Below the pieces are notes generated by a model. It was not told the DNA's origin. It saw only the letters and a list, made by a program, of their open reading frames with translations, and made no database searches. The position numbers and the translations under genes are program-made. Of a DNA stretch of 64,000 bases, positions 1,260 through 64,000 are shown piece by piece. The stretch spans positions 1,984,001 through 2,048,000 of the forward strand of contig NZ_CP014145.1 in assembly GCF_001542775.1 (NCBI RefSeq), given 5' to 3'. How positions within the stretch are numbered: the first letter of the stretch is position 1; the number at the start of each line of letters is the position of its first letter. This DNA comes from Microterricola viridarii. Its GTDB lineage: Bacteria; Actinomycetota; Actinomycetes; Actinomycetales; Microbacteriaceae.

Positions 1260-2374
1260 TCAGTGGCCGGTGAGCCAAGCGCGCAGCGCGCGTTCGCCGT
1301 CGGTGATCTGGGCGAGGAGCACGCGCTCGTCATCGGCGTGCGCCTTGAGCGGGTCGCCCGGCCCGAAGTTCACCGCCGGGATTCCGAGGGCGCTGAAGCG
1401 GGCGACATCCGTCCAGCCGTACTTCGGTCGCGGCTCCGCCCCGACCGCCGCGACGAAGTTGCGCGCGATGGCCGCGTCCAGTCCGGGGCGGGCGCCCTCT
1501 GCGGCATCCACCACCAGGATCTCGTAGCCCGGGAACAGCTCGTGCATGTGGGCGATCGCCTCGGCGACGCTGCGGCTCGGCGCGAAGCGATAGTTGATGT
1601 GCACCATGGCCTCGTCGGGGATGACGTTGCCTGCCACTCCCCGCTGATGCCGATCGCGTTCAAGCCCTCGCGGTAGACCAGGCCCTCGACCTCGACCTCG
1701 CGCGGCACATAGGTGGCGAGCGTCTGCAGCACCGCGCCGAGCTTGTGGATGGCGTTGTCGCCGACCCAGGCCCGCGCGGAGTGGGCGCGCACGCCGCGGG
1801 TGCGCAGCTCGAATCGGATGGTGCCGTTGCAGCCGCCCTCGACCTGGCCGTTGCTCGGCTCACCGAGGATGGCGAAATCGCCCGTGAACAAGTCGGGGCG
1901 GTCGGCGGCCAGCAGGCCCAGGCCGTTCAGCTCCGACGAGACCTCCTCGTTGTCGTACCACATCCAGGTCACGTCGACCCGGGGCGCGGTGAGCTCGGCG
2001 GCGAGCTTCAGCTGCACCGCGACACCCGCCTTCATGTCGACGGTGCCGCGGCCCCAGAGGTAGTCGCGATCCTCGAACGTCTCGAACCGGGTCGGCAGGT
2101 TGTCGTTGACCGGCACCGTGTCGATGTGGCCGGCGATGATGACTCGCTGCGCGCGGCCGAGGTTCGTGCGGGCAACGACGCAATTGCCGTGCCGGATCAG
2201 CTCGAGGTGCGCCGCGTCGGCCAGGGTCGCTTCGATTGCGTCCGCCAGCCGCTTCTCGGCGCCGGAGACGGAGTCGATGTCGCAGATCTGGCGGGTGATG
2301 TCGACCGAGCTGGCGGCCAGGTCCAGCCGCTCAGTGCCGGGGCCTGCGTTGACGGGAGATTCGAGGGCTGCCAT
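1260..2374 (-). pseudogene. dapE: Succinyl-diaminopimelate desuccinylase, frameshifted as given
   Basis: DapE hydrolyses N-succinyl-LL-2,6-diaminopimelate to LL-DAP and succinate, a late step of lysine and peptidoglycan precursor synthesis. It is an M20-family zinc peptidase. The N-terminal part reads through the metal-site motifs [21 protein letters not shown] and YDNEEVSSE. The C-terminal part resumes in another frame at [20 protein letters not shown] and ends KAHADDERV. The break is at the C4 run 1639-1642 (G4 on the coding strand). One more G gives [13 protein letters not shown] and a continuous 371-residue protein. ATG start at 2374. The gene is divergent from dapD. Probably a sequencing error, since the function is normally essential. 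Confidence 0.88.
1639..1642. other. Frame break in dapE at a 4-base G/C run
   Basis: Restoring a fifth G on the coding strand rejoins the two DapE halves without a gap. See the finding on recurrent four-base runs. Confidence 0.85.
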
Positions 2375-2473
2375 GCCCCCAGCGTAGCTTCCGGATGCTG
2401 CCGACTGCGGCATCCGGAACACACAGCGCAACGCGGAACCGGCGCCTCCCCGCGCGCCAGTACGCTTGACGAC

Positions 2474-3466
2474 ATGCACGTTACCGAGCCGTCTGGCGCC
2501 CCTGCCCCCATGCCCGCCGCCACGCACGCCTGGGCCTCCGGCCTCAGCACGGTCGCCGCTGATGGCACCGTGCTCGACGCCTGGTTCCCGGCTCCCGCAC
2601 TCGGCCGCCGGCCGGAATCCGTCGACCGGTGGATCGCCCCGGCCGAGTTCGCCGCGCTGCTCGGCGAGGACGCGCGCCGCGGGGTGCACGTCGACTTCGT
2701 CAACATCGAGATTGAGCTGGCGGCCGCCCCGGCCAGCACGGCCGACGCGTACCTGCGCCTGCACCTGCTCTCGCACCTGTTGGTGCGCCCGAACACGATC
2801 AATCTGGACGGCATCTTCGGCCAGCTGCCGAACGTGGCCTGGACCAACGCCGGCCCGATCGCCCCGGCCGACCTCGACAGGCTGCGCCCGCAGCTGCAGC
2901 GGGCTGGCATCCACGTCACCGGTCTGGACAAGTTCCCCCGGCTGCTCGACTATGTGACGCCGGAGCGGGTGCGCATCGCGGATGCCTCCCGCGTGCGCCT
3001 CGGCGCGCACCTCGCGCCCGGCACCACCGTGATGCACGAGGGCTTCGTGAACTTCAACGCGGGAACGCTCGGCTCCTCGATGGTGGAGGGTCGCATCTCG
3101 CAGGGCGTTGTCGTCGGCGACGGCGCCGACATCGGCGGCGGTGCCTCGATCATGGGCACGCTCTCCGGCGGCGGCACCGACCGCATCAGCATCGGAGCGC
3201 GGGCCCTGCTCGGCGCCAACTCGGGCGTCGGCATCTCGATCGGCGACGACAGCGTCGTCGAGGCGGGGCTCTACGTCACGGCCGGCACCAAGGTGGTCGT
3301 GATCGATCCGACCGCAGCGGCCGGCTCCCCCGTGCGTTCCGTGAAGGCCAGCGCCCTCTCCGGCGCGGCGAACCTGCTGTTCCGGCGCAACTCGCTGAGC
3401 GGCGCCGTCGAGGTGCTGCCGCGTGACGGCAGCGGCATCGTGTTGAACGCGGCCCTGCACGCCTAG
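2474..3466 (+). CDS. dapD: 2,3,4,5-tetrahydropyridine-2,6-dicarboxylate N-succinyltransferase
   Basis: DapD transfers succinyl from succinyl-CoA to tetrahydrodipicolinate, the first committed step of the succinylase route to meso-DAP. The 330-residue length matches the actinobacterial form, which is longer than that of E. coli. The C-terminal half holds the left-handed beta-helix of hexapeptide repeats ([20 protein letters not shown], then [20 protein letters not shown]). The N-terminal domain has the family stretch [17 protein letters not shown]. The gene is transcribed away from dapE across about 100 bases, so the two steps probably share a regulatory region. Confidence 0.93.
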
Positions 3467-3526
3467 GCGTGTCGGGCGGCCCGCCGTATAGGGTCGCAGT
3501 ACGGGATTCGCGACGAGGGGGTTGCA

Positions 3527-6121
3527 GTGGGAACGGACGCACCACGATCTCGGCGGAGCCGAGGGGTTCGAGCACTGATCGCCGTGCTGGCCACCGTGCT
3601 CGTGCTGCTGCTGGTCACGGCGGGCATCGGCATCTGGACGGTGCAGCGCTCCTTCCCCACCACGACCGGCCGCATCGACGTCCCCGGGCTGAGCAAGCCG
3701 GTCACCGTGTCCAGAGACGCAGCCGGCATCCCGCAGATCACCGCGGACACCGCCCACGACCTGTTCTACGCGCAGGGCTTCGTGCACTCGCAAGACCGCT
3801 TCTGGGAGATGGACTTCCGCCGGCACGTGACCAGCGGCCGGCTCGCCGAGATGTTCGGGGAATCTCAGGTGGGCACCGACTCCTTCATCCGCACCCTCGG
3901 CTGGCGCGCCACCGCCGAGGCGGAGGTGGCAATGCTCGACACCGAGACGCTCGGCTACTACGAGGCCTATGCCGAGGGCGTGAACGCCTACCTGGGCAGT
4001 CGTTCCGGCGCAGACCTCTCGCTCGAATACGCCGTCCTGGGGCTGCAGAACGGGCAGTACCAGCCGGAGCGCTGGACGCCGGCCGATTCCGTCGCCTGGC
4101 TGAAGGCGATGGCGTGGGACCTGCGCAGCAACCTCGAGGACGAGATCGACCGGGCGCTGCTGGCCACGGCGCTGCCCGCCGCGGATGTCGCGCTGCTGCA
4201 TCCGGCGTACCCCTACGGCACGCACCCGACGATCATCGCGGGCAGCGGAGCGCCGGCGGCCCCGGCAGCCCCGGCTGACGAGCCGGACTCTGAGGCGGAC
4301 GCGAGTGCGGACGCCGCGGATGCCGCGACGGCCGCGCTCGCCGAGCCGGCCGCGCTCGACGCCCTCGACGCGCTGCAGGCCAGCCTGGCCGCCCTGCCCG
4401 AGCTGATTGGCCCCGCCGGCAACGAGATCGGCTCGAACTCCTGGGTGGTGGCCGGGGCGCTGACCGAGTCTGGCTCCCCGCTGCTGGCCAACGACCCGCA
4501 CCTCGGCGCCGCCATGCCCTCTGTCTGGTACCAGATGGGACTGCGCTGCAGCACGGTCAGCGCGGAGTGCCCCTTCGACGTGGCCGGCTACAGCTTCTCC
4601 GGGCTGCCCGGCATCATCATCGGCCACAACGCCTCCATCGCCTGGGGCCTCACCAACCTGGGCCCAGATGTCGCCGACCTCTATCTGGAGAAGGTAACCC
4701 CCGACGGCTACGAGCTCGACGGGGCCGTGCACCCTTTCACCGTGCGCACCGAGACCATCACGGTGGCCGGCGGGGAGCCGGTCGAGCTGGAGATCCGCTC
4801 GACGGCCCGCGGCCCCGTCGTCTCCGGTATCACCGATCAGTTCGGGAGCATCGCCGCGGACTACCCCGCGGCGAGCGGGCTGCCGGCCGGCGACTACGCC
4901 CTGTCGCTGCAATGGACGGCGCTGACCCCTGGCCACACGCCGTCGGCCGTCTTCGCGATCGACAAGGCGCAGAACTGGGACGAGTTTCGGGCCGGCGCGC
5001 GCCTGTTCGAGGTGCCGTCGCAGAATCTGATCTATGCGGACACCTCCGGCAACATCGGCTACCAGGCGCCGGGCCGGATCCCGATCCGCAGCGCCGGCGA
5101 CGGCACGCTGCCGCTGCCCGGCTGGACGAGCGAGAACGGGTGGGTGGGCGAAATCCCGTTCGAGGAGCTGCCGAGCGTGCTCAACCCCGAGAGCGGCATG
5201 ATCGTCACCGCCAACAACTCCGCCGTCGGCGAGGGCTTCCCACGGATGCTCACCCAGGACTGGGATCTGGGCTACCGGGCACAGCAGATCAACGACCGGC
5301 TGACCACGGCCATCACCGCCGGGGAGAAGCTCACGGTGAAGGGCATGGCGTCGATCCAAGCCGATAACTTCAACGCGAACGCCGCGGCGCTCGCCCCGGT
5401 GCTGGCCGAGCTCCCCCTCAAACCGGAGGCGGCTGAGGCGCAGCGGCTGCTCGCGAACTGGGACTACTCCGATGACGCCGACTCTGCGGCATCCGCCTAC
5501 TTCAACATGACCTGGCGGCAGCTGCTCGCGGCGATGTTCCACGACAAGCTGCCGGAGAGCACGTGGCCGGCCGGCGGCGACCGCTGGTTCGGCGTCGTCG
5601 GCGCGCTGCTCGAACAGCCGGACTCCCCGTGGTGGACCAACGAGCGGCTCGGCATCTCCGGGCGCGACGCCATGCTCAGCTACGCGGCGGAGCAGGCCTG
5701 GCAGGAGGGCGTCGACACCTTCGGCGCCGACCCGCGGCGCTGGCAGTGGGGGAAGCTGCACACGCTCACCCTCACCAACGCGAGCTTCGGCGAGTCGGGC
5801 ATCGCGCCGATCGAGTGGCTGTTCAACCGCGGGCCGATCCCCGTCGCCGGCGGGTCCTCCGTGGTGAACGCGGTCGGCTGGGATGCGAGCACGGGTTACA
5901 CGGTCGACTGGGTGCCGTCGATGCGCATGGTTGTCGACCTGGCGGACCTCGACGACTCCACGTGGGTGAACCTGACCGGCGCGTCCGGGCACGCCTTCCA
6001 CCCGCACTACGACGACCAGACGCCGCTCTGGCAGGAGCATAAGACCCGGACCTGGGCCTTCACGCCGGATACCGTGCGCGAGGCCGCCCGCGACGTTCTG
6101 CAGCTGCATCCGAAGCCGTAG
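3527..6121 (+). CDS. Penicillin acylase family protein (N-terminal nucleophile hydrolase)
   Basis: S45-family amidase precursor of 864 residues. Members hydrolyse amide bonds of beta-lactam side chains, N-acyl homoserine lactones or other acyl amides; the substrate here is unknown. After a cytoplasmic start there is one hydrophobic segment (about residues 15-40), so the protein is exported or anchored. The alpha-part motif FYAQGFVHSQDRFWEMD is present. The expected self-cleavage site is GSNSW, with Ser about residue 303 as nucleophile. A spacer of almost only Ala, Asp, Glu and Pro (about residues 240-282) precedes it. The beta part has NDPHLG and the oxyanion region. GTG start with upstream GAGGGGG. 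Confidence 0.85.
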   Translation: MGTDAPRSRRSRGVRALIAVLATVLVLLLVTAGIGIWTVQRSFPTTTGRIDVPGLSKPVTVSRDAAGIPQITADTAHDLFYAQGFVHSQDRFWEMDFRRHVTSGRLAEMFGESQVGTDSFIRTLGWRATAEAEVAMLDTETLGYYEAYAEGVNAYLGSRSGADLSLEYAVLGLQNGQYQPERWTPADSVAWLKAMAWDLRSNLEDEIDRALLATALPAADVALLHPAYPYGTHPTIIAGSGAPAAPAAPADEPDSEADASADAADAATAALAEPAALDALDALQASLAALPELIGPAGNEIGSNSWVVAGALTESGSPLLANDPHLGAAMPSVWYQMGLRCSTVSAECPFDVAGYSFSGLPGIIIGHNASIAWGLTNLGPDVADLYLEKVTPDGYELDGAVHPFTVRTETITVAGGEPVELEIRSTARGPVVSGITDQFGSIAADYPAASGLPAGDYALSLQWTALTPGHTPSAVFAIDKAQNWDEFRAGARLFEVPSQNLIYADTSGNIGYQAPGRIPIRSAGDGTLPLPGWTSENGWVGEIPFEELPSVLNPESGMIVTANNSAVGEGFPRMLTQDWDLGYRAQQINDRLTTAITAGEKLTVKGMASIQADNFNANAAALAPVLAELPLKPEAAEAQRLLANWDYSDDADSAASAYFNMTWRQLLAAMFHDKLPESTWPAGGDRWFGVVGALLEQPDSPWWTNERLGISGRDAMLSYAAEQAWQEGVDTFGADPRRWQWGKLHTLTLTNASFGESGIAPIEWLFNRGPIPVAGGSSVVNAVGWDASTGYTVDWVPSMRMVVDLADLDDSTWVNLTGASGHAFHPHYDDQTPLWQEHKTRTWAFTPDTVREAARDVLQLHPKP

Positions 6122-6530
6122 GGGCAGCGCCGGCGTCTCGATACTCGACCAACGGGTTGGGCGGGTCCCCTCCCGTTGGCTCGAGGGAGCGCCAGCGACC
6201 GAAGCCAATAACCGAACGGCCACGCCGGCTCCCGGGCTTCGGCGCCTGCGCTGCTCGTTCCTCGCGGCGCGGCCGCCTCCAGCCGACGTGCGTTCCCCGC
6301 CGGTCACGCCTCAGCCGGCGCGCAATTCCCCGCTGATCGAGGAGGCCCGCCAGGGCCGTATCGAGACCCGGTCACCGGCGAGAAACCGTGTCACGCACGA
6401 GGTCTCGATACGCTCGTTCCTCGCTACTCGACCAACGGGTAAGGCGGCGCGCACAACGTGGCCGGGGCGGAACGCGAAACGACCCCGCTGGCCAGGGGCC
6501 GACGGGGTCGTTCTCAGAGTGGACCGGTGC
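6122..6530. repeat. Intergenic region with palindromic Microbacteriaceae-type repeats
   Basis: About 400 bases without a convincing gene. At 6144-6185 an inverted repeat has arms CTCGACCAACGGG / CCCGTTGG-C-TCGAG around a G-rich loop. A related stretch at about 6400-6440 repeats CTCGATACGCTCGTTCCTC and CTCGACCAACGGG. Such REP-like elements are common between genes in this family, and no function is claimed. The right end holds the citrate synthase terminator. Confidence 0.6.
6479..6511 (-). terminator. Terminator downstream of citrate synthase
   Basis: Perfect 9-base arms ACGACCCCG / CGGGGTCGT around a 15-base loop. On the minus strand the hairpin is followed by TTT. It lies 20 bases beyond the gltA stop. 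Confidence 0.75.
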
Positions 6531-7859
6531 TTAGCGCTCCGGGAAGTCGCGCGCGGGCGCTCCCGTGTACAGCTGCTGCGGGCGGCCGATCTTCGTCTGC
6601 GGGTCCTCGTTCATCTCACGCCAGTGCGCGATCCAGCCGGGAAGGCGGCCGATCGCGAACAGCACGGTGAACATGTGCGTCGGGAAGCCCATCGCCTTGT
6701 AGATGACGCCGGTGTAGAAGTCGACGTTCGGGTACAAGCGGCGGGACTTGAAGTACTCGTCCTCCAGCGCGATCTTCTCGAGCTCCATGGCGATGTCGAG
6801 CAGTTCGTCCTTGACGCCGAGCGCCTCGAGCACCTCGTGGGCGCTCTCCTTGACCAGCTTGGCGCGCGGGTCGTAGTTCTTGTAGACGCGGTGCCCGAAG
6901 CCCATCAGCTTGACGCCGGCTTCCTTGTTCTTCACGCGCTCCACGTAGCGGGCAACGCCCTCTCCGGAGTCGCGGATCTCGGCGAGCATCGTCAGCACGG
7001 CCTCGTTGGCGCCGCCGTGCAGCGGGCCGAACAGCGCGTTGATGCCGGCGGAGACGGAGGCGAACAGGTTGGCCTCGGTCGAGCCGACCAGGCGCACCGT
7101 CGAGGTGGATGCGTTCTGCTCGTGGTCCTCGTGCAGGATCAGCAGGCGCTCCAGCGCCTTCGACAGCACCGGGTTGACGACGTAGGGCTCGGCCAGGTTG
7201 CCGAAGTTGAGCTTCAGGAAGTTGTCGACGAAGCTCAGCGAGTTATCGGGGTACAGGAAGGCCTGGCCGATGCTCTTCTTGTGCGCGTAGGCCGCCATGA
7301 CGGGCAGCTTCGCGAGCAGGCGGATGGTGGCCAGCTCGACGTGTTCCGGGTTCTTCGGGTCGATCGAGTCCTGGTAGTAGGTCGACAGGGCCGAGACACC
7401 GGATGCCAGCACCGACATGGGGTGGGCGTCGTGCGGCAGCGCGCTGAAGAAGCCCTTCAGGTCTTCGTGCAGCAGCGTGTGGCGACGGATCTTCTCGTCG
7501 AACTCGCTGAGCTCGGTGGCGGTCGGCAGCTCGCCGTAGATCAGCAGCCATGCTGTCTCGAGGAAGCTCGCGTTCTTCGCGATCTGCTCGATCGGGTAGC
7601 CGCGGTAGCGCAGGATGCCCTGCTCGCCGTCGATGAACGTGATCGCCGACTTCGTCGACGCCGTGTTCACGAAGCCGTAGTCCAGACCGGTCAGGCCGGT
7701 CTGCTTGGTCAGCGTGGACATGTCCAGGCTGTCTGGCCCGTCGACGCTGGAGATGATGGGGAACTCTGCAGTTCCGCCCGGGTAGCTCAGCGTTGCAACG
7801 GCCGGCTGTGTCGGCTTGGCTGCGGCTGTTCCGGCCTGTGTCTGATCGACGTCGCCCAC
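6531..7859 (-). CDS. gltA: Citrate synthase
   Basis: Condenses acetyl-CoA and oxaloacetate to citrate, the entry step of the TCA cycle. It is the type II (larger, usually hexameric) form. Family stretches include ITFIDGEQGILRYRGYPIEQ, LILHEDHEQNASTSTVR, the active-site region FGPLHGGANEAV and MGFGHRVYKNYDPRAK, which carries the catalytic His. The GTG at 7859 was chosen because AGGAGG sits 4 bases upstream, giving 442 residues. An in-frame start at 7913 would add 18 residues of low complexity. The gene stands alone, with its own terminator. Confidence 0.95.
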   Translation of the reverse strand: MGDVDQTQAGTAAAKPTQPAVATLSYPGGTAEFPIISSVDGPDSLDMSTLTKQTGLTGLDYGFVNTASTKSAITFIDGEQGILRYRGYPIEQIAKNASFLETAWLLIYGELPTATELSEFDEKIRRHTLLHEDLKGFFSALPHDAHPMSVLASGVSALSTYYQDSIDPKNPEHVELATIRLLAKLPVMAAYAHKKSIGQAFLYPDNSLSFVDNFLKLNFGNLAEPYVVNPVLSKALERLLILHEDHEQNASTSTVRLVGSTEANLFASVSAGINALFGPLHGGANEAVLTMLAEIRDSGEGVARYVERVKNKEAGVKLMGFGHRVYKNYDPRAKLVKESAHEVLEALGVKDELLDIAMELEKIALEDEYFKSRRLYPNVDFYTGVIYKAMGFPTHMFTVLFAIGRLPGWIAHWREMNEDPQTKIGRPQQLYTGAPARDFPER

Positions 7860-8146
7860 GGGGCCTCCTGGATCCTGGATGGTGGAAGTAGAAGAAAGTT
7901 GATGGACGGGCACGCGATGGGCGGGCAGTCCGAGTTACAGCCTAATCCGCCCCGCGACCTACTGTTGCATCCGCTGAAGAATGCGAGGATCCGTTAGAGG
8001 TAAGCTCCTGAATCTGCGCCCCAGCCCGGCACACTAGGATCAGCCCATGACCACGAGGCGGGGGCTCGCTGGCTGCGGCATCGCCGCGGCGGCCCTCCTC
8101 TTGTTCGGCTGCGCGGCCGGACCGGATGCCGACGACTGGCGCCTCT

Positions 8147-8150
8147 CCCC
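8147..8150. other. First frame break in the 8047 lipoprotein gene
   Basis: C4 run. Adding one C joins the signal peptide to the downstream reading frame with no lost residues. Confidence 0.75.
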
Positions 8151-8895
8151 GTCACCGTGAACGACGGCTCCGCCGGGGACAGCGATGTCACCTACGTCAT
8201 CTGGAACATCAGCGACGACACCGCGGGCGGCGTCTGGACGGAATCCGCCGGATCTTGGCTCCGTGTGGCGGCGGATGGCGCGATCACCCGGTTCAACGCC
8301 GGCCCCGAGTACGGGCGGACCGCCCTCGACATCGCCGCGATCAACACAACCATGCTCTACGTGCTGCGCCCCCTCGGCAGCGGCCAGCTGAACACAACGG
8401 TCGAGCTCTTCGACACCGCGACCCGCGTCTCAGAGCCTGTGCTCACCGGCCAGCGTGTGCCGACGAGCCCCGATCCGATTCGGCCGTTCACCGCGGACGG
8501 CCCCGTCACGGTTGACTCCCCGTTCGGCCCGATCACGAGCATCGACGTCGACCAGAGCGGCCGGCTCGTCTTCGTCGAACGCGTGGACCTGCCGCGCCAC
8601 AGCTCCGAGCAGTATGTGGTGCGACGGATGTCGCGCGACGGCGCGCTGGAAACGCTCGCCGGGATGGCGCCGCCGCCCGCCGAGGGCAGCGGGACCGAGG
8701 TTCCGGTCAGGCAGCCGCGCGACGGCGAGCAGCTCCGCACCCTCGCCCTGACTGCGGCATCCGTCGATGTCACCGCCGGCGACCCCCTCGGCATCGTCAT
8801 CGGAACGGAGCACGGCGTGTTCCAGATCAGGGAGGACGGCACCGCCCGCGTCATCGACGGCGCGCTGCCAGCCGACTCCCCCGACGTGCCGCGCT

Positions 8896-8899
8896 GGGG
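8896..8899. other. Second frame break in the 8047 lipoprotein gene
   Basis: G4 run. Adding one G joins VPRWG to YGPGYRVRLVD and carries the frame on to the natural stop at 9241. Confidence 0.75.
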
Positions 8900-10350: not shown

Positions 10351-10361
10351 GGGGCGGGCGC

Positions 10362-10682: not shown

Positions 10683-10733
10683 AGTGTTCAGATTCCCTTC
10701 GCGAGCCCACCCTTGCAGGCGGTTCCCACAAGT

Positions 10734-11804: not shown

Positions 11805-11834
11805 CTCCCAGACTTACAGCCACACGGAAGAACC

Positions 11835-27056: not shown

Positions 27057-29969
<2,913 letters not shown>

Positions 29970-31592: not shown

Positions 31593-31667
31593 TGACAAGG
31601 AGTTCCTCACGTCGAACCGGCAGGCGCCGGGCGAGATTCTGGACGGTCGCGTGACCGTCTCGGAACT

Positions 31668-31869
31668 CCCCCTCTGTCATCCGGCCTGAGAGTTTCACCG
31701 CGGCCCGCCGGAGTCGGCAGGGAGTGCGGCTTTCACCTTGGGCGGGATCTCGCTTGGCGAGATCCTCTTTCCAGAGTGGCCAAATCGACGCGGTACTTAT
31801 ACCTGAGAGATTGTCGGGGAGGATTGCTCCTTCGGTGCCGATACGCATCGCTGCGCCCGGCTCTCCCGC
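31668..31869 (-). ncRNA. Tandem glycine riboswitch of gcvT
   Basis: On the minus strand the leader holds two glycine-aptamer signatures. Aptamer 1 begins GGGAGAGCCGGGCGC and has GCACCGAAGGAGCAA, then CTCCCC and ATCTCTCAGG. Aptamer 2 follows a short linker containing GTACCG, with GGAAAGAGGATC, then GCCCAAGGTGAAAGCC, and closes with GAAACTCTCAGGCCGG. Glycine binding is known to turn on gcv operons in this class. It ends about 75 bases before the gcvT ATG. Confidence 0.92.
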
Positions 31870-31964
31870 GTCGACCATGTGGCCCGATATTCAGTTGCTG
31901 CCAGCATAGCGCGCGGGCTGGGGCGCCGCGCGCGGCGCCCGCCTGGGTCACGCAATTGCCTTCA

Positions 31965-36628: not shown

Positions 36629-37809
36629 ATGAGCCAGCCCAGCAACTCCCTGTATCACGACGCGATCTACCTCGACCATGCCGCGAGCGCCCCCGTGCGC
36701 CCCGAGGCACTGGCCGCGATGTGGCCGTGGTTGAGCGGCGAGTTCGGCAACCCGTCCAGCCACCACCGGGCCGGGGAATCCGCCGCGGCCGCGCTCGAGG
36801 CGGCCAGGTCCGAGGTTGCCGCTGCGCTCGGCTGCCGGGCCGGCGAGGTGCTGTTCACGGCCGGCGGCACCGAGTCCGACAACCTCGCCGTCAAGGGCAT
36901 CGCGCTCGGCCGGCCGCGCGGCCGGCACATCGTCAGTACACCGCTCGAGCACGAGGCTGTGCTCGAGTCGCTCGACTACCTGCGCCGGCTGCACGGGTTC
37001 ACCGTTGACTTCCTGCACCCGGATGCCGCCGGCCGGGTCGACCCCGCCGAGCTCGCCGCCCTGCTGCGCCCAGACAGCACGCTCGCCAGCGTGCACTACG
37101 CCAACAACGAGATCGGCACGGTGCAGCCGATTCCGGAGCTCGCCGCCGTCGCCGCCGCGGCGGGGGTGCCGCTGCACACGGACGCGGTGCAGGCCGCAGG
37201 CTGGCTGCCGCTGGACGTGCGCGCGCTCGGCGTGGACGCCCTCGGCATCTCGGGCCACAAGGTCGGCGCCCCAAGGGCATCGGTGCGCTGTTCGTGCGCG
37301 GTCGGTTGCCGTTGGAACCGTTGCTGCACGGCGGCGGCCAGGAGCGGGGTCGGCGCAGTGGCACCGAGAACGTCGCTGGGGCCGTCGCCCTGGCGACCGC
37401 GCTGAGGCTGGCGGAGGGCGAGCGTCTGGCCGGCGCCGCCGATCACGCCACCGCCCTCCGCGACGAGTTCATCACGGCCGTGCTCGGCGCGGTGCCCGAG
37501 GCGACCTTGACCGGGCACCCGAGCAGCCGCCTGCCCGGCTCCGCCTCCTTCGTGTTCGCCGGTACCAGCGGCGAGGCTGTGCTGTTGGAGCTGGAGCGCC
37601 GCGGCGTGATCTGCTCCAGCGGTTCGGCGTGCGCGGCCGGCTCCGACGAGGCCTCCCCCGTGCTCACCGCGATCGGCCTGCCGCCGGAACTGGCGCAGAC
37701 CGCCGTGCGCTTCACCTTCTCCACGGCTACCAGCGCCGAGCAGCTCCGGGCCGCCGCGGCCGCCGTCGTGGGCGCGGTCGCCGCGGTCGCCGGCATCGCC
37801 GGCCGTTAG
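36629..37809 (+). pseudogene. Cysteine desulfurase (NifS/IscS type), frameshifted as given
   Basis: PLP enzyme that removes sulfur from cysteine. As the last gene of nadABC it probably supplies sulfur for NadA's cluster. It begins YLDHAASAPVRPEALAAMWP and has FTAGGTESDNLAVKG, HYANNEIGTVQP and the PLP lysine region ISGHKVGAP. The frame then breaks at the C4 run 37269-37272. One more C gives APKGIGALFVRGRLPLEPLLHGGGQERGRRSGTEN, and the second half carries the active-site loop SSGSACAAGSDEAS. Repaired length is 393 residues. It starts nine bases after nadC. The break is probably an error in the sequence. Confidence 0.88.
37269..37272. other. Frame break in the cysteine desulfurase gene
   Basis: C4 run. 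A fifth C restores the family sequence GAPKGIGALF without loss of residues. Confidence 0.85.
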
Positions 37810-43233: not shown

Positions 43234-44903
<1,670 letters not shown>

Positions 44904-55690: not shown

Positions 55691-55759
55691 GTCGTTCACC
55701 CTCCGTGAGTGCGGTTCACTTGGAGATATGTGGCCAAAGGCCCAAACCTTGCATGTGGC

Positions 55760-56305: not shown

Positions 56306-56464
56306 CGCGTCCCCCTCGCTCACATCGGCCACGGCTGTTTCGTTGTCGATCGTCACGTGTGGAATATGTCGCGACCTCGCCGATTCTTGCAGCGGATTCG
56401 GAAATCCTTCGACAGCGGGCGCCACGTTGTGTCGGCAGACCTGTTTTCAGCCTGCTCGGCACGC

Positions 56465-57430
56465 TCAGCCGAGCGAGAGTGCGACGCCATCGAGGATGTC
56501 GTGTTCGCTCGTCGTGACGAACTCGAGTGGGTGCCCGGCGGCGGCCGTCGCCTGCGCGATCCGCTGCAGGACGGTCGACCAGATGACCGCCCCGGCCACG
56601 ATCACGTCGACCCGGCCCGGGTGCATGAACCCCAGAGCGGCCCGCTCGGCACGCGGCATCCGGGCGAGCGAGTCGCAGGCGTCGAGCACGACGGCCAGCG
56701 GCAGCTTGCTGCCGTTGATCGCGTCTGGCTGGTAGGAGTCCAGGCCCAGCGCGTGCGCGGTGATCGTCGTCACCGTGCCGGCCACGCCGACGACCTCGGT
56801 CGCGAGCGACACATCGACGGTGGCGGACGCGGCGTCCAGTGCGGCATTCACGTCTGCGCGCAGTGCGGCCAGTGCGGCGTCGTCTTGCGCGACGTCACCG
56901 TCCACCCCAGCGCCCAGATGCCGCTCGGTCATGCGCACGCAGCCGATGTCCATAGAGATCGCGGCCTCGGGCGCATCGCGCCCGAGCACCAGCTCGGTCG
57001 AGCCGCCGCCGAGGTCGATGACGAGGTGGCGCGCGGCGGGATCGTGCTGCGCGGCCACCGCGGTGAGCGCGCCGCGGAAGGACAGCGCGGCCTCCTCGGT
57101 GCCGGCGATCACCTCGGCCGGAACGCCGAGGATCTGCTGCACGGCGTCGGTGAACTCGGCGCGGTTGGCGGCGTCACGGGTGGCGGATGTCGCGACGAAA
57201 CGGATCCGCTCGACCCGGTGCTCGCGGCAGAGCTCGGCGTAGCGGCGGGTGGCGTCCAGAGTGCGGGCGAGCGCGTCATCCGCGAACCGCCCGGTCTTGT
57301 CGACGCCCTGCCCCAGCCGCACCACCTCGAGCGTGCGCACCACGTCGCTGAGGCCGCCGCGCCCGTCAAGGTCGGCGATGAGCAGGCGGATCGAGTTGGT
57401 TCCGCAGTCGATGGCGGCTACACGGGTCAC
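56465..57430 (-). CDS. Ppx/GppA phosphatase family protein
   Basis: 321 residues. It has the phosphate-binding AAIDCGTNSIRLLIADLDGRGG, then VIAGTEEAALSFRGAL and VIDLGGGSTELVLG. Members hydrolyse polyphosphate or pppGpp; which one is used here cannot be told. It is the short form lacking the C-terminal HD-like extension of larger Ppx. It stands between the ECF pair and the lipoprotein gene. Confidence 0.88.
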   Translation of the reverse strand: MTRVAAIDCGTNSIRLLIADLDGRGGLSDVVRTLEVVRLGQGVDKTGRFADDALARTLDATRRYAELCREHRVERIRFVATSATRDAANRAEFTDAVQQILGVPAEVIAGTEEAALSFRGALTAVAAQHDPAARHLVIDLGGGSTELVLGRDAPEAAISMDIGCVRMTERHLGAGVDGDVAQDDAALAALRADVNAALDAASATVDVSLATEVVGVAGTVTTITAHALGLDSYQPDAINGSKLPLAVVLDACDSLARMPRAERAALGFMHPGRVDVIVAGAVIWSTVLQRIAQATAAAGHPLEFVTTSEHDILDGVALSLG

Positions 57431-57514
57431 GGGTCACACTTTCGGTCGGGCGAACAGGCCCCTTCGAGGCTAGCCTGCGGATGCGCTCGCGCGAACACCC
57501 GGCGCCCGCACCCG

Positions 57515-58192
57515 TTACGAGCAATACTCGCTCGGCGGCGTGGGGGTGTCGCGCACGAAGATGCCTCGAACGGTGTCGTCGTACAGGCTGAAGACGATCC
57601 ACACCCGAGCATCGCCTGGCACCGCGTAGAACAGGGTCGGGTCCTCTCCCCCGCCGTATTCACCGGATTTCGCGATGTCGGGGTAGGCGGCCAGCAACTC
57701 GGCCAGCGATGAACCGATGCGAATGCCCTCTGCCGTGTGCGGAGAGCTGTTGCTCACATCCATTGAGCTGTCCCACCCCGAGAGAGACATGCCGGTGACG
57801 GTGGAGAAGTCGTCGGAGAGGTGCGCCACCAGCGTCAGCGCTCCGTCGTGTTTGAACCGTGCGGCGGGGCACCACTCGGGCAGTTCGTCCTCGACGAATG
57901 CCGCCATGGCTGGCCGCACCTCGGCGATCGGCCCGCCCTGTGCGACCGGCCCGATCCCATCAAAACCGATCAGCCACGAGCTCGGATCCTCGAGATCGAT
58001 CGCGGGCACTGCCGGCTGCTCGGGCTCCACCGGGGGTGGAGTTTCGTCCTGACTGGGAGCAGGGGTGGCGGGTGCCGTCGGCGTCTGTGGATCCGTCGTC
58101 GGATCCGGCCGAGCCCCCGGCCCGGGAGTGCACCCGCTGAGCAGAGCGATGACGATGCCGACACCAACCGCGGTCGCACACAGCGACTTCAT
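57515..58192 (-). CDS. Putative lipoprotein of unknown function
   Basis: About 225 residues from the ATG 58192. The signal peptide ends VGIVIALLSGC, followed by a Pro/Thr-rich linker and a domain with SWLIGFDGIGPVAQGGPIAE, GIRIGSSLAELLAAYPDIAK and ARVWIVFSLYDDTVRGIFV. This last pattern is often seen in actinobacterial lipoproteins. The start is not certain: GTG 58207 or TTG 58219 are also in frame. Its function is not recognised. Confidence 0.75.
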   Translation of the reverse strand: MKSLCATAVGVGIVIALLSGCTPGPGARPDPTTDPQTPTAPATPAPSQDETPPPVEPEQPAVPAIDLEDPSSWLIGFDGIGPVAQGGPIAEVRPAMAAFVEDELPEWCPAARFKHDGALTLVAHLSDDFSTVTGMSLSGWDSSMDVSNSSPHTAEGIRIGSSLAELLAAYPDIAKSGEYGGGEDPTLFYAVPGDARVWIVFSLYDDTVRGIFVRDTPTPPSEYCS

Positions 58193-58427
58193 CCCCCGGA
58201 AAGTACTCACGAGCTCCAACCTAAGAGACGGGATGCCGCGAGCGCGAGACGCAAGGGCGACGAGGCCATCTGACGGAACGAATCGTTATGTCTGCGCACG
58301 CCCGGTCGGCGGTGCGGGCCAAACGAGGAGCGCCTCGGCACGCACCTGCCGGGGTCGCTGAGCCGGGAGATACCCTTGAAGGGGATCGACCGCTTGCGCG
58401 GCATCCGTCAAACAATTGGGGGAACTC

Positions 58428-58727
58428 ATGACAGACAGCTCAACCACGTCGACCGGCCACGCGGGGCGCGGGCTCGGCATCACGGCCTTCATCCTCTCCA
58501 TCTTCCTGAACATTGTCGGCGTCATCCTGGGCATCATCGCCTTGATGATCTCGCGCCGGGCCGGCGTGAAGAACGGCTGGGCGGTGGCGGCCATCGTCGT
58601 CGGCGCCGTCATCTTTGTGGTGCTGGGCGCGGCAACCCTGGTCGGCCTCACCGCCATCAACACGCAGTGCGGCGATCTGGGCCCCGGCGTGCACCAGTGG
58701 AACGGCCTGACGCTGACCTGCCCCTAG
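58428..58727 (+). CDS. DUF4190-like small membrane protein
   Basis: 99 residues. After a short polar start come two hydrophobic segments: LGITAFILSIFLNIVGVILGIIALMISRR, then WAVAAIVVGAVIFVVLGAATLVGLTAI. The layout recalls DUF4190-type proteins. GGGGGAACTC lies just upstream of the ATG. It is divergent from the lipoprotein gene, and the function is unknown. Confidence 0.8.
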   Translation: MTDSSTTSTGHAGRGLGITAFILSIFLNIVGVILGIIALMISRRAGVKNGWAVAAIVVGAVIFVVLGAATLVGLTAINTQCGDLGPGVHQWNGLTLTCP

Positions 58728-58806
58728 CCCGCCGGTGGGCTAGTGCTCGATCTCGATCGCGGCCGGTCGCCGCGGCATCCGGGACCGCGGCAAAGAGGAC
58801 GGAGCG

Positions 58807-59481
58807 CTACTCCCGGCCATCCTCGAGCGGGATGAGCATGGTGCGGAAGGGACCCGGCGTGGAGTGCAGCTCCCAGATGCGCGAGGCGATGTCGTCGACG
58901 CCGCCCGGCAGCTGAAGTTTGGGAATGCCTCCTGGGATCACGAGCTGGCGGACGCGGATGCCCTCGTCCTCGAGCGCCTCGTGAAGCATCTCGCCATAGG
59001 CGCTCTCGGCCGGGAACGCAACCGACGTTCCGGCGAACCCGGCGCGTGCCTTCACCGAGGTGCCACCGTTGATGAGGATGACGCTGCCCTCGCCCTTCTC
59101 GCGCATTGCCGGCAGCACTGCGCGCACCGCGTGGATGAGGCCGAGCGCTGAGAACTGCAGCGCTTCCAGCGCCAGCTCGGGAGTCAGATCGAGTACCGGC
59201 TTCAGGTACTCGCGAGACGGGAGCGGGCTGTACTGCAGCGTGAGAATCGGGCCCAACTCGACGGCGGCACGCGCGAGCGCGGCCTCAAGTGCCGCTGGCT
59301 CCCGCACGTCCGCGGCGTAGCCACGGGCGCTCACGCCATCCGCTTCGAGCTCGGCGGCCAAGGCGTCAAGCTTCGACTGGTCCCTGGAGATCAGGGCAAC
59401 CGAGAAGCCCACGCGTCCGAACGTGCGGGCGACCGCTGCGCCGAGTCCCGGTCCAGCTCCGATGATTGCGATGACGGGCAT
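58807..59481 (-). CDS. SDR-fold protein without the usual Tyr-x-x-x-Lys
   Basis: 224 residues of Rossmann fold. The nucleotide motif IIGAGPGLGAAVARTFGRVGF is near the N-terminus and INGGTSVKARAGFAG holds the usual serine (Ser142). The position expected for Tyr and Lys reads AFPAESAYGEM (155-165), with Phe156 and Ser160 or Glu159 in place of the pair. Dehydrogenase activity is therefore doubtful. It may bind NAD(P) as a regulator. AAGGAAC lies upstream of the ATG. Confidence 0.8.
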   Translation of the reverse strand: MPVIAIIGAGPGLGAAVARTFGRVGFSVALISRDQSKLDALAAELEADGVSARGYAADVREPAALEAALARAAVELGPILTLQYSPLPSREYLKPVLDLTPELALEALQFSALGLIHAVRAVLPAMREKGEGSVILINGGTSVKARAGFAGTSVAFPAESAYGEMLHEALEDEGIRVRQLVIPGGIPKLQLPGGVDDIASRIWELHSTPGPFRTMLIPLEDGRE

Positions 59482-59610
59482 TGTGAGTTCCTTCGGCGAT
59501 GACGGCGGCTTGGGTTCCCGAAAGCCTACCGGGGCGCGGCCAGGTGGGCGGCGCGGCTCAGCGGTCCAGATCCGGCCCTGGTCCCGGCAACCGCGCGATA
59601 CCGTGAATAC

Positions 59611-60195
59611 ATGGCCGAAATCGAAGGACTCGACGAATTGCTGACAGCGCTGAACGCCGGAGTGACGATTCCCGGTGGTTCGCCACACCACGCGGCCATG
59701 CACGCCGCGAGTCAGGAGTCGTTGCGCATCACCGCCGAGCTCAACGGGCGCTACCACTCCCCGGATGGCGTCAGGGCGCTGATGAGCGAGCTGATCGGGC
59801 ACGAGGTCCCCGAGTCGTTCACTCTCTTCCCGCCGTTCAGCGCCGACTTCGGCAAGAACATCCGTTTCGGTGCGGATGTGTTCGTCAACAGCGGCTGCCG
59901 ATTCCAGGATCAGGGCGGCATCGACATCGGCGAGGGATCCCTCATCGGCCACAACGCCGTCATCACGACGTTGAACCACGACATGGCGCCGAGCCGTCGG
60001 GCCGACATGCACCCGGCGCGAGTGGTGATCGGCCGGGGCGTGTGGTTCGGGGCCAACGTGACGGTACTGCCGGGCGTGACGATCGGCGATGGAGCCGTGG
60101 TCGGCGCGGGAGCCGTTGTCACGAAGGATGTGGCCCCGCTGGCCGTGGTCGTTGGCGTGCCAGCGAAGCAGGTGGGCACGGTGTCGGACGACTGA
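59611..60195 (+). CDS. Sugar O-acetyltransferase (LacA/Maa-like)
   Basis: 194 residues. It has the N-terminal maltose-acetyltransferase-like helix region ([20 protein letters not shown]) and a left-handed beta helix of hexapeptide repeats ([20 protein letters not shown], then [32 protein letters not shown]), with the His residue of [17 protein letters not shown] in the active-site zone. It transfers acetyl from acetyl-CoA to a sugar. ATG start. Confidence 0.92.
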
Positions 60196-60256
60196 TCGGC
60201 GCTTCAGACGTGCCCCTTCGTCGGCTCGAACCGCCGAAGCCGGACCGCCGGGAGGG

Positions 60257-60661
60257 TCAGGCGGTCTCGCGCGGCGGGTTGTGCATGAACTCAATCCGGA
60301 TGCCGTTGTCGTCCTCGACGAAGGAGGCGTAGTACCGGTCCGTGAACCGGGGGTACTCCTTCGGGTCGCGCACAACCGTCCAGCCGGTGTCGGTCGCGAT
60401 CCGATGCAGGCGGTCCACCTCCGCGCGCGAGCCGACGGCAAAAGCCAGGTGCTGCCACCCGACTCGCCCGTGACGGTGCGGCCCAGTACCCGGATCTCGA
60501 GCCGGCAGCAGGATGAGCTCCGGCTCTCCGTCCAGGTTCCAGGAGACCGACCCGTTGGCGTCGTACCGGGCGAATCCGAGCGCCGTCAGCACAGGGTCGA
60601 ACTGGGTGACCGCGCGCGGCACGTCGTCGACCGTGATGCCGAGATGATCAAAAATGGGCAT
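60257..60661 (-). CDS. VOC superfamily protein
   Basis: 134 residues with two beta-alpha-beta-beta-beta units of the glyoxalase/bleomycin-resistance fold (DHLGITVDDVPRAVTQFDPVLTALGFARY, then HLAFAVGSRAEVDRLHRIAT, then SFVEDDNGIRIEFMHN). The metal-site positions fit an extradiol-dioxygenase-like or glyoxalase-like role. Substrate unknown. Confidence 0.87.
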   Translation of the reverse strand: MPIFDHLGITVDDVPRAVTQFDPVLTALGFARYDANGSVSWNLDGEPELILLPARDPGTGPHRHGRVGWQHLAFAVGSRAEVDRLHRIATDTGWTVVRDPKEYPRFTDRYYASFVEDDNGIRIEFMHNPPRETA

Positions 60662-60700
60662 GAGCAGACGCTACCGGATGCATCCGCCGCGGCCCTCGAT

Positions 60701-60740
60701 AAGTCCCGCGGCCCCCGATAAATCCGGTGCCGCGGGACTT
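60701..60740. repeat. Inverted repeat between the VOC and ychF genes
   Basis: Perfect 12-base arms AAGTCCCGCGGC / GCCGCGGGACTT. A second possible pairing, GGCCCCCGA (60710-60718) with TCGGGGGCC (60742-60750), overlaps it, so two mutually exclusive folds exist. No function is clear. Confidence 0.5.
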
Positions 60741-60781
60741 TTCGGGGGCCGCGAGCGCGAAGCGAGCGTGCGAACACCGGA

Positions 60782-60813
60782 ACGGCCCCACCTGCCGAAG
60801 CAGACGGGGCCGT
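60782..60813 (-). terminator. Terminator downstream of ychF
   Basis: Arms ACGGCCCC / GGGGCCGT with an inner CTGC-CGAA-GCAG hairpin. It lies about 20 bases beyond the ychF stop; the minus-strand exit is weakly T-rich. Confidence 0.65.
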
Positions 60814-60831
60814 GCCAGAAGCGAAAATGAA

Positions 60832-61905
60832 CTAGACGTTGAAGCGGAACTCCACGACGTCGCCGTCCTGCATGACGTATTCCTTGCCCTCCATGCGGGC
60901 CTTGCCCTTGGAACGAGCCTCGGCGACCGAGCCGGTCTCGACGAGGTCCTCAAAGGAGATGACCTCGGCCTTGATGAAGCCGCGCTCGAAGTCGGTGTGG
61001 ATGACGCCGGCAGCCTGCGGGGCCTTGGCACCCTTGGGGATGGTCCAGGCGCGGGTCTCTTTCGGACCAGCGGTGAGGTAGGTCTGCAGGCCGAGGGTGT
61101 CGAAGCCGATGCGGGCGAGCTGGTTGAGGCCGGACTCGGTCTGACCGGTCGAGGCGAGCATCTCGGCGGCATCCTCGTCGTCCAGGTCGATCAGCTCGGA
61201 CTCGAGCTTGGCGTCCAGGAAGATGGCCTTGGCCGGGGCGACGAGGGCGGCCAGCTCGGCGAGCTTGGCGTCATCCTGCAGCACAGCCTCGTCAACGTTG
61301 AAGACGTAGATGAAGGGCTTGGCCGTCAGCAGGCCAAGCTCCTTGATGGGCTCGAGGTCGACGGATGCCGCAGACAGCGGGGTTCCGGCGTTCAGCACGT
61401 CGCGGGCCTCGTTGGCGGCCACGAGCACCTCCGGGCCGAGCTTCTTGCCCTTGATCTCCTTCTCGAAGCGCGGGATCGCCTTCTCGAGGGTCTCCAGGTC
61501 GGCGAGGATCAGCTCGGTGTTGATGGTCTCCATGTCGCCGGCCGGGTTGACCTTGCCGTCGACGTGCACCACGTCGGAGTCGGCGAAGCCGCGCACGACC
61601 TGCGCGATGGCGTCGGCCTCGCGGATGTTGGCGAGGAACTTGTTGCCTAGGCCCTCACCCTCGCTGGCGCCGCGCACGATGCCGGCGATGTCGACGAACG
61701 ACACCGCAGCCGGCAGGATGCGCTCGCTGCCGAAGATCTCGGCGAGTTTCTCCAGCCGGGCATCGGGCAGGTTGACGACACCGATGTTGGGCTCGATCGT
61801 GGCGAACGGGTAGTTCGCCGCGAGAACCTGGTTCTTCGTCAGAGCGTTGAAAAGGGTTGACTTGCCGACGTTGGGCAGACCAACGATTCCAATAGTAAGA
61901 GCCAC
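60832..61905 (-). CDS. ychF: Redox-regulated ATPase YchF
   Basis: Obg-family P-loop protein (357 residues) that prefers ATP to GTP and binds ribosomes. Motifs are [16 protein letters not shown], the [29 protein letters not shown] block and the C-terminal TGS domain ([20 protein letters not shown]). The GTG at 61905 gives the family length. It is divergent from the exonuclease gene. Confidence 0.96.
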
Positions 61906-61977
61906 GGTGGGACAGTCTACCTTTCCCGTGCGCCTCCTTCGAAGCCTGCTGTCACCGACGCGTGAGAGCATGGAATC

Positions 61978-62595
61978 GTGCCCCTAGATTTCACCGCGAT
62001 CGACTTCGAAACCGCCAACTCCTCCTCCGCCTCGGCCTGCTCAGTCGGGCTGGTCAAGGTGCGCGATGGCCGTGTCGTTGACGAGGCGAACTGGTTCATC
62101 AAGCCGGCGCCCCCGCACGACGAATTCATGATGTGGAACACGAAGATCCACGGCATTGTGGCGGCGGATGTCGCCGGCGCCGCCGACTGGGCCGGGCAGC
62201 TGCCCGACCTCCTCGACTTCGTCGACGGCGACCACCTGGTTGCGCACAATGCGAGCTTCGACCTCGGCGTGATCAAAGCGGCCACGATCGCCAGCGGGCT
62301 GGTCGTGCCCGACCTGCGCTACGTCTGCAGTCTGCAGGTGGCGCGGCGCACCTACCACCTGGATTCCTACCGGCTCCCGGTCGCGGCGATGGCGGCCGGC
62401 TTCGAGGACTTCCGGCACCACGACGCCCTCGCCGACGCGGAGGCCTGCGCGGCCATCATCGTTCACGCGGCCGCCCGGCACGAGGCCGAAGATCTGGAGC
62501 GCCTTGCGCACATCACCCGCGTGAAGGTCGGCGTGATCGGGCCGGTCGCCACGGCCGATCACGCCAGCTCGCACGGGCCGATGGCCCTGCAGTAG
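61978..62595 (+). CDS. DEDDh 3'-5' exonuclease (DNA polymerase III epsilon-like)
   Basis: 205 residues. Acidic site motifs are FTAIDFETAN (Asp-x-Glu), VAHNASFDLGVI (Asp) and FRHHDALADAEAC (His and Asp). It resembles stand-alone epsilon-like exonucleases used in proofreading or RNA turnover. The C-terminal ~35 residues are unassigned. GTG start. Confidence 0.9.
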   Translation: MPLDFTAIDFETANSSSASACSVGLVKVRDGRVVDEANWFIKPAPPHDEFMMWNTKIHGIVAADVAGAADWAGQLPDLLDFVDGDHLVAHNASFDLGVIKAATIASGLVVPDLRYVCSLQVARRTYHLDSYRLPVAAMAAGFEDFRHHDALADAEACAAIIVHAAARHEAEDLERLAHITRVKVGVIGPVATADHASSHGPMALQ

Positions 62596-62672
62596 CTGGC
62601 GTTTAGCGGCGGGCTCCCCGGTTGCGCGGTGTCGCAGCGAGCCGTGTCGGTGGCAGCTGATTCACTTGCAAG

Positions 62673-64000
62673 ATGGAACCTCTCTTGATGCTCGTGCTCG
62701 GCCTCCTGCTCGGAGCCGCCGTCGGCGTGATCGCCACCTGGATCTATGCCCGCCGGGGCTCCGCGGGTGCCGCTGCCGGGCTGTCGCCCGAGGTGCTGGC
62801 CGCGCGGCACGCGCTGGAGCTCTCTGAGGTGCGCGCCGCCGCGGCATCCGCCCACGCCGGGCTGCAGGCCGAACTCGCCGCAGCCGATGCCACCGTCGAC
62901 GGCCTGCTCACCCAGATCGAGGCGCAGAAGCTGCAGTTCGGCGAGCTGACCGAGCGGCACCGCGCCGACCGCATCGAGCAGGCCGAGCGGGAGCGCCGCG
63001 AGAGCGCCGTGCTGCAGGCGCTCGGCCCGGTGCGCGAGACGCTCAGCACCATGCAGACCACCGTCACCGAGCTCGAGAAGCAGCGCAGCGAGCAGTTCGG
63101 CTCCCTCGCCGAGCAGCTCAAGCAGGCGCAGCTCTCCGACGAGCAGCTGCGCGGGGCGACCGAGTCGCTGGCCAGCGCGCTGCGCTCCAACAGCACCCGT
63201 GGCGTGTGGGGCGAGACGCAGTTGCGCCGCGTCGTGGAGGCGGCGGGTCTGGCCCAGTACGTCGACTTCGACGTGCAGCAGACGATCACGACGGATGCCG
63301 GAATCGGCCGCCCCGACATGGTGATCCGGCTGCCCGGCGGCAAGTCCATCGCCGTCGACGCGAAGGTGCCGCTGGAGCACTACCTGGAGGCGAGCCAGAT
63401 CTCCGTCACCGCGACCGGCGAGGAGGGGGCGCGCCGCAAGGCGCTCGTCGACCGGCACGTCAAGGCGGTGCGCGGGCACATCGATGCCCTCGCCAAGAAG
63501 ACGTATTGGGAGGGGCTCGACGCCAGCCCGGAGTTCGTGGTCGCGTTCATCCCGAGCGAGTCGCTGCTCTCCTCCGCGCTTGAGGCCGACCCGGCGATCC
63601 TTGAGTACTCCTTCAGCAAGCGGGTCGCCCTCGCCTCCCCGTCAACCTGTGGGCAGTGCTGAAGACCGTCGCCTACACCTGGCAGGAGCAGGCGCTGACG
63701 GATGACGCGAAGAAACTGTTCGAGCTGGGTAAGGCGCTCTACGCGCGCCTTGGAACGCTGAGCACGCACGCCGATGGGCTCCGCAAGGCGATCGAGCGCA
63801 CCGTGGACAGTTACAACAAGTTCGCGAACTCGCTCGAGACCCGCGTGCTCGTCACGGCGCGGCAGTTCCCCGGCATCGACGAGACGAAACTCGACCTGCT
63901 GATCGCGCCCGCCCCGATCCACGAGGTGCCGCGCAAGCTGACCGCCGTCGAGCTGGAGCTGCCCGATGCCGCCGAGGCTGCGCCGGAGCTGGAGCTGCCC
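62673..64000 (+). pseudogene. rmuC: DNA recombination protein RmuC, frameshifted as given and cut by the window edge
   Basis: The RmuC family limits recombination at inverted repeats and has a PD-(D/E)xK-like nuclease core. It starts MEPLLMLVLGLLLGAAVGVIATWIYARR (membrane anchor), then a coiled-coil stretch (SEVRAAAASAHAGLQAELAAAD onward to TELEKQRSEQF). The core shows NSTRGVWGETQLRRVVEAAGL and VIRLPGGKSIAVDAKVPLEHYL. The frame breaks at the C4 run 63637-63640. One more C gives LASPVNLWAVLKTVAYTWQ. The reading continues to the end of the window, so the C-terminus is missing here. Confidence 0.88.
63637..63640. other. Frame break in rmuC
   Basis: C4 run. A fifth C restores ASPVNLWAVLKTVAYTWQ, matching the conserved RmuC core without loss of residues. 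Confidence 0.85.

What the first reader, a model, noticed from the sequence alone, without database searches (positions are those of the whole stretch)
1639..63640. Six frame breaks, all at four-base G or C runs that need one more base
In dapE (1639-1642), the 8047 lipoprotein gene twice (8147-8150 and 8896-8899), the cysteine desulfurase (37269-37272), the ABC-F gene (43461-43464) and rmuC (63637-63640), the frame breaks at a run of exactly four G or C. In each case one added base makes a run of five and restores a full protein with no residues lost. dapE is normally essential, and five unrelated genes would not decay in this identical way. This looks like homopolymer under-calling in an assembly. 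Some five-base runs elsewhere in coding sequence are kept (for example in the ABC-F gene near 44816), so the error is partial.
Basis: partly seen in the sequence, partly recalled or inferred. Interest (0 to 1): 0.75.

Follow-up and report, generated by a model that had tools for sequence, protein, structure and literature searches.

The report
Assembly errors that shorten G/C runs
The broken genes in this environmental bacterium are almost certainly sequencing mistakes, in which runs of five or six identical G or C bases were written one base too short, so the cell most likely makes the normal proteins; this is an ordinary and known kind of error.

Summary
The window lies in a single-contig 3.69-Mb Microterricola genome (Microbacteriaceae). 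Six frame breaks in five genes are real in the sequence. Five sit at G/C runs of exactly four, as stated. The sixth is misplaced: three relatives show the lipoprotein frame changes at a C5 run (8878-8882), not at the G4 run 8896-8899.

The breaks are not special to the window. In 1.12 Mb of this genome (0.86 Mb aligned to relative G001) I accepted 31 single-base breaks, all losses, at or next to G/C runs of four or more; the reverse comparison found three broken genes in G001. Inferred loss rises with true run length: 0 of 3697 (four), 24 of 833 (five), 7 of 50 (six). At lost sites G001 matches a full-length run about as often as at intact five-base runs. Two of three 23S rRNA copies lack one C of a C6 run kept in the third copy and in six copies of two relatives. 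Downstream parts of 12 broken genes keep the substitution pattern of working genes.

Best explanation: homopolymer under-calling in a long-read assembly, a known error. The essentiality argument is weaker than stated (intact Ddh bypass of DapE). A context lead failed a test set in advance. No reads were available.

The parts
1639..1642 (-). C4 run (G4 in the coding strand) at which the dapE frame breaks; the pieces are about 1263-1637 and 1631-2353
   Evidence: Pieces match TIGR01900 positions 228-351 and 3-225, back to back; G001, G002 and G003 have a five-base run here; dapE is one open frame in all four relatives.
8147..8150 (+). C4 run at which the frame of the predicted lipoprotein gene (from 8047) first changes
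   Evidence: Three-frame reading against G002/G003 proteins; G001 and G002 have no longer run at this place, so which base is missing is not shown by relatives.
8878..8882 (+).
   Evidence: G001, G002 and G003 proteins follow the downstream frame already before 8896; G002 has a six-base run here, G003 does not.
8896..8899 (+).
   Evidence: Run confirmed; frame already changed upstream.
37269..37272 (+). C4 run at which the NifS/IscS-type cysteine desulfurase frame breaks; pieces 36629-37270 and from about 37270 to 37809
   Evidence: Pieces match TIGR03402 1-199 and 214-366, each below the whole-protein cut-off (the second query began at 37294); G002 and G003 have a five-base run, G001 has the run with one substitution.
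43461..43464 (-). C4 run (G4 in the coding strand) at which an ABC-F ATPase gene breaks; described only, pieces searched apart
   Evidence: pieces match NF000355 separately and below its cut-off; G001 and G002 have a five-base run, G003 has the run with one substitution.
63637..63640 (+). C4 run at which the rmuC frame breaks
   Evidence: Pfam RmuC 8.5e-61 on the first piece; G003 has a five-base run, G001 and G002 do not.

Best explanation
The breaks are consensus errors of the genome assembly, not features of the organism. True runs of five or six G or C were written one base too short in a small share of cases (about 3% of five-base and 14% of six-base runs in aligned genes, by inference), probably because long-read data alone (PacBio continuous long reads or nanopore) were used without short-read polishing. 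Shown here: single-base, one-sided, run-length-dependent losses in all four stretches compared; no decay downstream of 12 breaks; unequal 23S copies. Inferred: that the platform is the cause, and that cells hold the longer runs and make full-length proteins.
For: (1) All 31 accepted single-base breaks over 1.124 Mb of this genome (0.86 Mb aligned) are losses in this genome; 28 are supported by tblastn or by reading frames against relatives, 3 by DNA alignment only. tblastn of G001 proteins finds this genome frame-broken at 13 of 416, 4 of 142, 5 of 121 and 7 of 119 well-matched genes (25 of these 29 genes hold accepted sites); the reverse finds G001 broken at 2 of 424, 0 of 144, 0 of 123 and 1 of 123. 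(2) Loss by inferred true run length: 0 of 3697, 24 of 833 and 7 of 50 for runs of 4, 5 and 6. (3) At 29 mapped lost sites G001 differs from a full-length run at 0/1/2/3 bases in 11/12/3/3 cases; at 915 kept five-base runs the shares are 47.5/35.1/14.4/3.0% (chi-square on 0, 1, 2 or more: p=0.59), as expected if this genome really has the longer run. (4) Two of three 23S copies have C5 where the third and all six copies of G001 and G002 have C6; it is the only difference among this genome's 23S copies. (5) The third-codon-position share of substitutions is 0.70 downstream and 0.67 upstream of 12 breaks: no relaxed constraint. (6) Broken genes include the only FumC-like gene whose best model is fumarase (though below that model's cut-off in all five genomes; no class I fumarase) and a MurT-type ligase. 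(7) Precedent: a PacBio-only Clostridium autoethanogenum genome had about 240 erroneous deletions in 4.35 Mb from under-called homopolymers, found by Illumina with a sample checked by Sanger (PMC4687164, passages).
Against: No reads, assembly method or strain name were available, so nothing was tested directly. At 18 of the 29 mapped sites G001 has no uninterrupted longer run (G002 or G003, compared around the window only, has it at two of these), so there the lost base could be a neighbouring one; three of the 29 differ at three bases, more than the 3% of kept runs. The run-length table rests on my assigning each gap to a run of four or more. dapE loss need not be lethal because an intact Ddh is present. 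Two 16S copies compared show no difference. Sites are denser in the window than elsewhere (6 in 64 kb; Poisson p=0.0095, but the window was chosen for this), which simple under-calling does not explain unless coverage varies.
Confidence: 0.94

Rival explanations
1. Real slippage mutations: the sequenced clone is a mutator or a decaying lineage in which G/C runs contracted in many genes.
For: Real slippage also rises with run length (general knowledge). Ddh offers a bypass for dapE, so that gene could be lost. Density varies along the genome.
Against: No single-base gain among the 31 accepted sites, though slippage gives gains as well as losses; downstream parts of 12 genes show normal constraint; a fumarase-like gene, a MurT-type ligase and 23S copies are hit alike; assembly completeness is 100.
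Confidence: 0.04
2. A mixture: most breaks are errors, but one or a few of the 31 are true lesions in dispensable genes (for example the Stealth-type or lipoprotein gene).
For: G001 has a few breaks too (at window coordinates 230585 and 355220, and a third), so a low background of true or erroneous slips exists.
Against: The background from G001 (3 genes in the same stretches) is about a tenth of the number seen (29 genes by the same tblastn test).
Confidence: 0.25
3. Programmed ribosomal frameshifting at C4/G4 restores the proteins.
For: Frames on both sides look maintained by selection.
Against: At 16 sites checked the run is C or G in the coding strand and lies in all three codon phases (phase 1 in 9 of 16); the relatives are in frame without any shift; thousands of four-base runs in conserved genes are read normally; rRNA is affected too.
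Confidence: 0.01

Closest known systems
PacBio RS II homopolymer under-calling in the published Clostridium autoethanogenum genome (PMC4687164; passages seen)
   Same: Single-base losses in homopolymers, apparent frameshifts in needed genes, about 240 in 4.35 Mb; here 31 in 0.86 aligned Mb.
   Different: That genome is 31% G+C and its discrepancies include T runs; here every accepted site is G/C, but A/T runs of five or more are too rare in these genes to judge (6 in 383 kb). There Illumina and Sanger proved it; here no reads.
Deletion-type gene-fragmenting errors in minION assemblies as profiled by Kastor (PMC12007338; passages seen)
   Same: Deletion errors associated with homopolymers, most after runs of four to five.
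   Different: That paper reports a range of run lengths, insertions and substitutions; here 31 losses and no gains among accepted single-base sites.

Membership tests
Homopolymer under-calling artefact | Losses only, in homopolymers, rising with run length | tested here: met
   0 of 3697, 24 of 833, 7 of 50 (lengths inferred as present length plus one); no single-base gain accepted in this genome (dropped rows are told under Tried and rejected).
Homopolymer under-calling artefact | Blind to gene function, including RNA genes | tested here: met
   Two of three 23S copies short at a C6 run; fumarase-like, MurT-type, thioredoxin and transporter genes among the broken ones. Two of the three 16S copies were compared and are identical.
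Homopolymer under-calling artefact | Accurate reads show the longer run | not testable with these tools
   No reads available.
Homopolymer under-calling artefact | Assembly made from long reads alone | not tested
A paper on the complete genome of Microterricola ERGS5:02 is reference 20 of PMC5909252, which cites references 19 and 20 for its PacBio RSII sequencing (passages); that this window belongs to that strain is not shown.
True pseudogenes | Relaxed constraint downstream of the lesion | tested here: not met
   Third-position share 0.70 downstream and 0.67 upstream over 12 genes; very recent lesions would not show it.
Programmed frameshift site | Fixed slippery sequence in a fixed codon phase, conserved in relatives | tested here: not met
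   Both bases and all three phases at 16 sites; relatives in frame.

The most novel reading that the evidence does not exclude
The strain truly carries dozens of contracted G/C runs in conserved genes, including a fumarase-like gene and 23S copies, and survives because its ribosomes or RNA polymerase slip at such runs often enough to make full-length products.
Probability: 0.02. Interest if true: 0.85.

Novelty: not a real feature. Interest (0 to 1): 0.13.

Why it matters
It is a warning, not a discovery. By extrapolation roughly 100-130 genes of this single-contig genome may be listed as broken when they are not, which would mislead pathway or pseudogene analyses of the genus. Unequal rRNA copies at a homopolymer offer a quick within-genome check for the same error in other assemblies.

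Tried and rejected
Context lead: after the first 17 sites, lost runs looked enriched for CT-C(n)-G (9 of 17 against 129 of 991 kept, p=1.2e-4, post hoc). I wrote a prediction beforehand, took two new stretches and found 1 of 14 (counted by eye from the list; background 13.7%). The prediction failed and the lead was dropped (pooled 10 of 31, p=0.007, driven by the sample that suggested it).

Strand lead: in the window all six corrected sites are C runs on the + strand, but elsewhere both strands occur; not pursued. Clustering: 10 of 14 sites in 108 kb of the first 564 kb (scan p=0.001, span chosen after the fact); the later stretches gave 3 in 200 kb, 6 in 180 kb and 8 in 180 kb, so density varies; uneven coverage is a guess.

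Rows dropped before counts. Single-base rows: 355220 and 230585 (window coordinates; this genome's gene is open and G001's is broken) and 912187 (genome coordinate; poorly matching stretch, shown again). Gaps of 2, 5, 8 and 11 bases. Mixed clusters: 559564 (24 bases plus one) and 1303964 (an 18-base gap plus a one-base gain in this genome; one search shows two one-base gains there, an A and a C, probably between genes, not settled). Clusters with several gaps, except those at 8878, 1400189, 470907 and 498926, which tblastn resolved. Of the 29 genes that tblastn called broken, four hold no accepted site: those at window coordinates 143270 and 236489 and at genome coordinates 872963 and 1387446. 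Kept though seen by DNA alignment only: 349492 (window coordinate), 1342331 and 1396687 (genome coordinates). For the last two stretches I assigned each gap to the nearest G/C run of at least 4 within 14 bases; one (1422291) lies five bases from where BLAST put the gap and a few lie one base off, so the figures for 'touching' a run (2e-19 for 14, 4e-42 for 31) are too strong and I do not rest on them. Lost runs also count among the kept runs of their present length, a small effect.

Essentiality was tested and found weak for dapE (Ddh present). The fumarase call was checked: the broken gene's best model is class II fumarase but below its cut-off, and it also passes a broad aspartate ammonia-lyase subfamily model; the second FumC-like gene is intact and best matched by aspartate ammonia-lyase.

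Literature: five searches; one search found nothing. No paper on these breaks appeared in those listings; the ERGS5:02 paper itself was not seen, only its entry in a reference list.
Full report
What the window is. The window is positions 1984001-2048000 of a single-contig genome of 3,689,726 bases, completeness 100 and contamination 0.52. It is therefore taken to be a Microterricola (Microbacteriaceae), an environmental actinobacterium (habitat recalled). The strain is not named by the tools.

The observation. All six runs are present and exactly four long. DNA alignment of the window and its flanks with G001 gives single-base, frame-changing gaps inside relative genes at dapE, the cysteine desulfurase, the ABC-F gene and rmuC. 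tblastn of proteins from G001, G002 and G003 matches this genome in two frames at the same places, and G002 and G003 show the second lipoprotein break. The dapE pieces cover positions 3-225 and 228-351 of the DapE model, and all four relatives have dapE in one frame. In the window's 62 called genes there are 253 runs of four, 65 of five and one of six, so most five-base runs are intact. About 58.7 kb of the window aligned to G001; breaks in the rest could have been missed.

Beyond the window. I compared 564 kb around the window, then 200 kb far away, then two stretches of 180 kb with the matching parts of G001; 0.86 Mb aligned. Together with the two lipoprotein breaks, 31 single-base breaks were accepted (list; dropped and weakly supported rows are told under Tried and rejected). 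All 31 are losses in this genome. tblastn of G001 proteins finds this genome broken at 13 of 416, 4 of 142, 5 of 121 and 7 of 119 well-matched genes; in the reverse direction G001 is broken at 2 of 424, 0 of 144, 0 of 123 and 1 of 123. Of the three G001 cases one is a C4 where this genome has C5, one a C6 where this genome has C5, and the third has a gap of several residues and may be something else. By run length, losses are 0 of 3697 (four to three), 24 of 833 (five to four) and 7 of 50 (six to five). The class of a lost run is inferred as its present length plus one.

Is the missing base really part of the run? At 29 sites that map to G001, the G001 segment is one base longer. It is a perfect run in 11, has one other base in 12, two in 3 and three in 3. 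At 915 kept five-base runs of this genome the same comparison gives 435, 321, 132 and 27. The distributions do not differ clearly (p=0.59 with two or more pooled), as expected if the true sequence here is the longer run and G001 has simply diverged at some bases. At single sites without a perfect run in any relative the lost base stays ambiguous.

rRNA. This genome has three 23S copies. They differ at one place only: two have C5 and one has C6 on the strand examined. All three copies of G001 and all three of G002 have C6. Copies of rRNA normally stay alike by recombination (general knowledge), so a one-base loss in a homopolymer in two copies fits a calling error. Two of the three 16S copies were compared and are identical.

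Selection. Across 12 broken genes, substitutions against G001 by codon position are 131/91/459 upstream and 121/81/472 downstream of the break, so the downstream parts look like working genes. Broken genes by family match, several read from the intact G001 copy, include DapE, a NifS-type cysteine desulfurase, RmuC and an ABC-F ATPase, a class II fumarase-like gene, a Na/sulfate-type symporter and a Stealth-type protein, thioredoxin and CorA (the CorA site rests on DNA alignment only), and a MurT-type ligase, an M17 peptidase, a P-type ATPase, an AhpC/TSA peroxiredoxin and a CNNM/CorC-type protein. No class I fumarase was found in G000 or G001. The fumarase-like gene scores below the FumC cut-off in all five genomes; the other FumC-like gene is intact and best matched by aspartate ammonia-lyase.

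Mechanism. The most likely cause is a consensus built from long reads without short-read polishing. In Clostridium autoethanogenum a PacBio-only genome carried about 240 wrong deletions from under-called homopolymers, found by Illumina with a sample checked by Sanger sequencing (PMC4687164, passages). For minION assemblies, most deletions follow runs of four to five (PMC12007338, passages). A complete Microterricola genome, ERGS5:02 (J Biotechnol 2016, seen only as a reference-list entry), is one of two references given for PacBio RSII sequencing in PMC5909252 (passages); I cannot show that this window belongs to it. By extrapolation, 31 sites in 0.86 aligned Mb suggest about 130 in the genome, or about 100 if all 1.124 Mb is taken as the base.

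Tests that failed or limit the claim. A sequence-context idea (CT-C-G) failed on new data. The window is denser in breaks than the rest (6 in 64 kb against 25 in 1060 kb), partly because it was chosen for them. Without reads the verdict remains inference, at about 94%.

Noticed in passing
31664-31878 (-): Tandem glycine riboswitch aptamers (Rfam RF00504, 67.0 and 46.6 bits) near the glycine decarboxylase gene at 27057-29969; a known arrangement (recalled).
   Followed up: no
G000:C1:1869402-1872516, 2436170-2439285, 2820922-2824036: Three 23S copies that differ only by one C in a C6/C5 run; two copies are short.
   Followed up: yes
window coordinates 230585 and 355220 (own genome) against G001: G001 itself has a broken gene at a C4 run where this genome has C5, and another at a C6 run where this genome has C5; G001 may carry a few errors or true slips of its own.
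   Followed up: partly
G000:C1:872963: An 8-base extra stretch that breaks a gene relative to G001; not a homopolymer slip, possibly a true lesion. The gene looks LysR-like by eye (no family search).
   Followed up: no
43234-44903 (-): The broken ABC-F gene resembles ribosomal-protection-like ABC-F proteins (NF000355, pieces below the cut-off); its role is unknown and it was described only.
   Followed up: no
G000:C1:498492-499014: A peroxiredoxin gene with two single-base breaks about 240 bases apart, like the lipoprotein gene in the window.
   Followed up: partly
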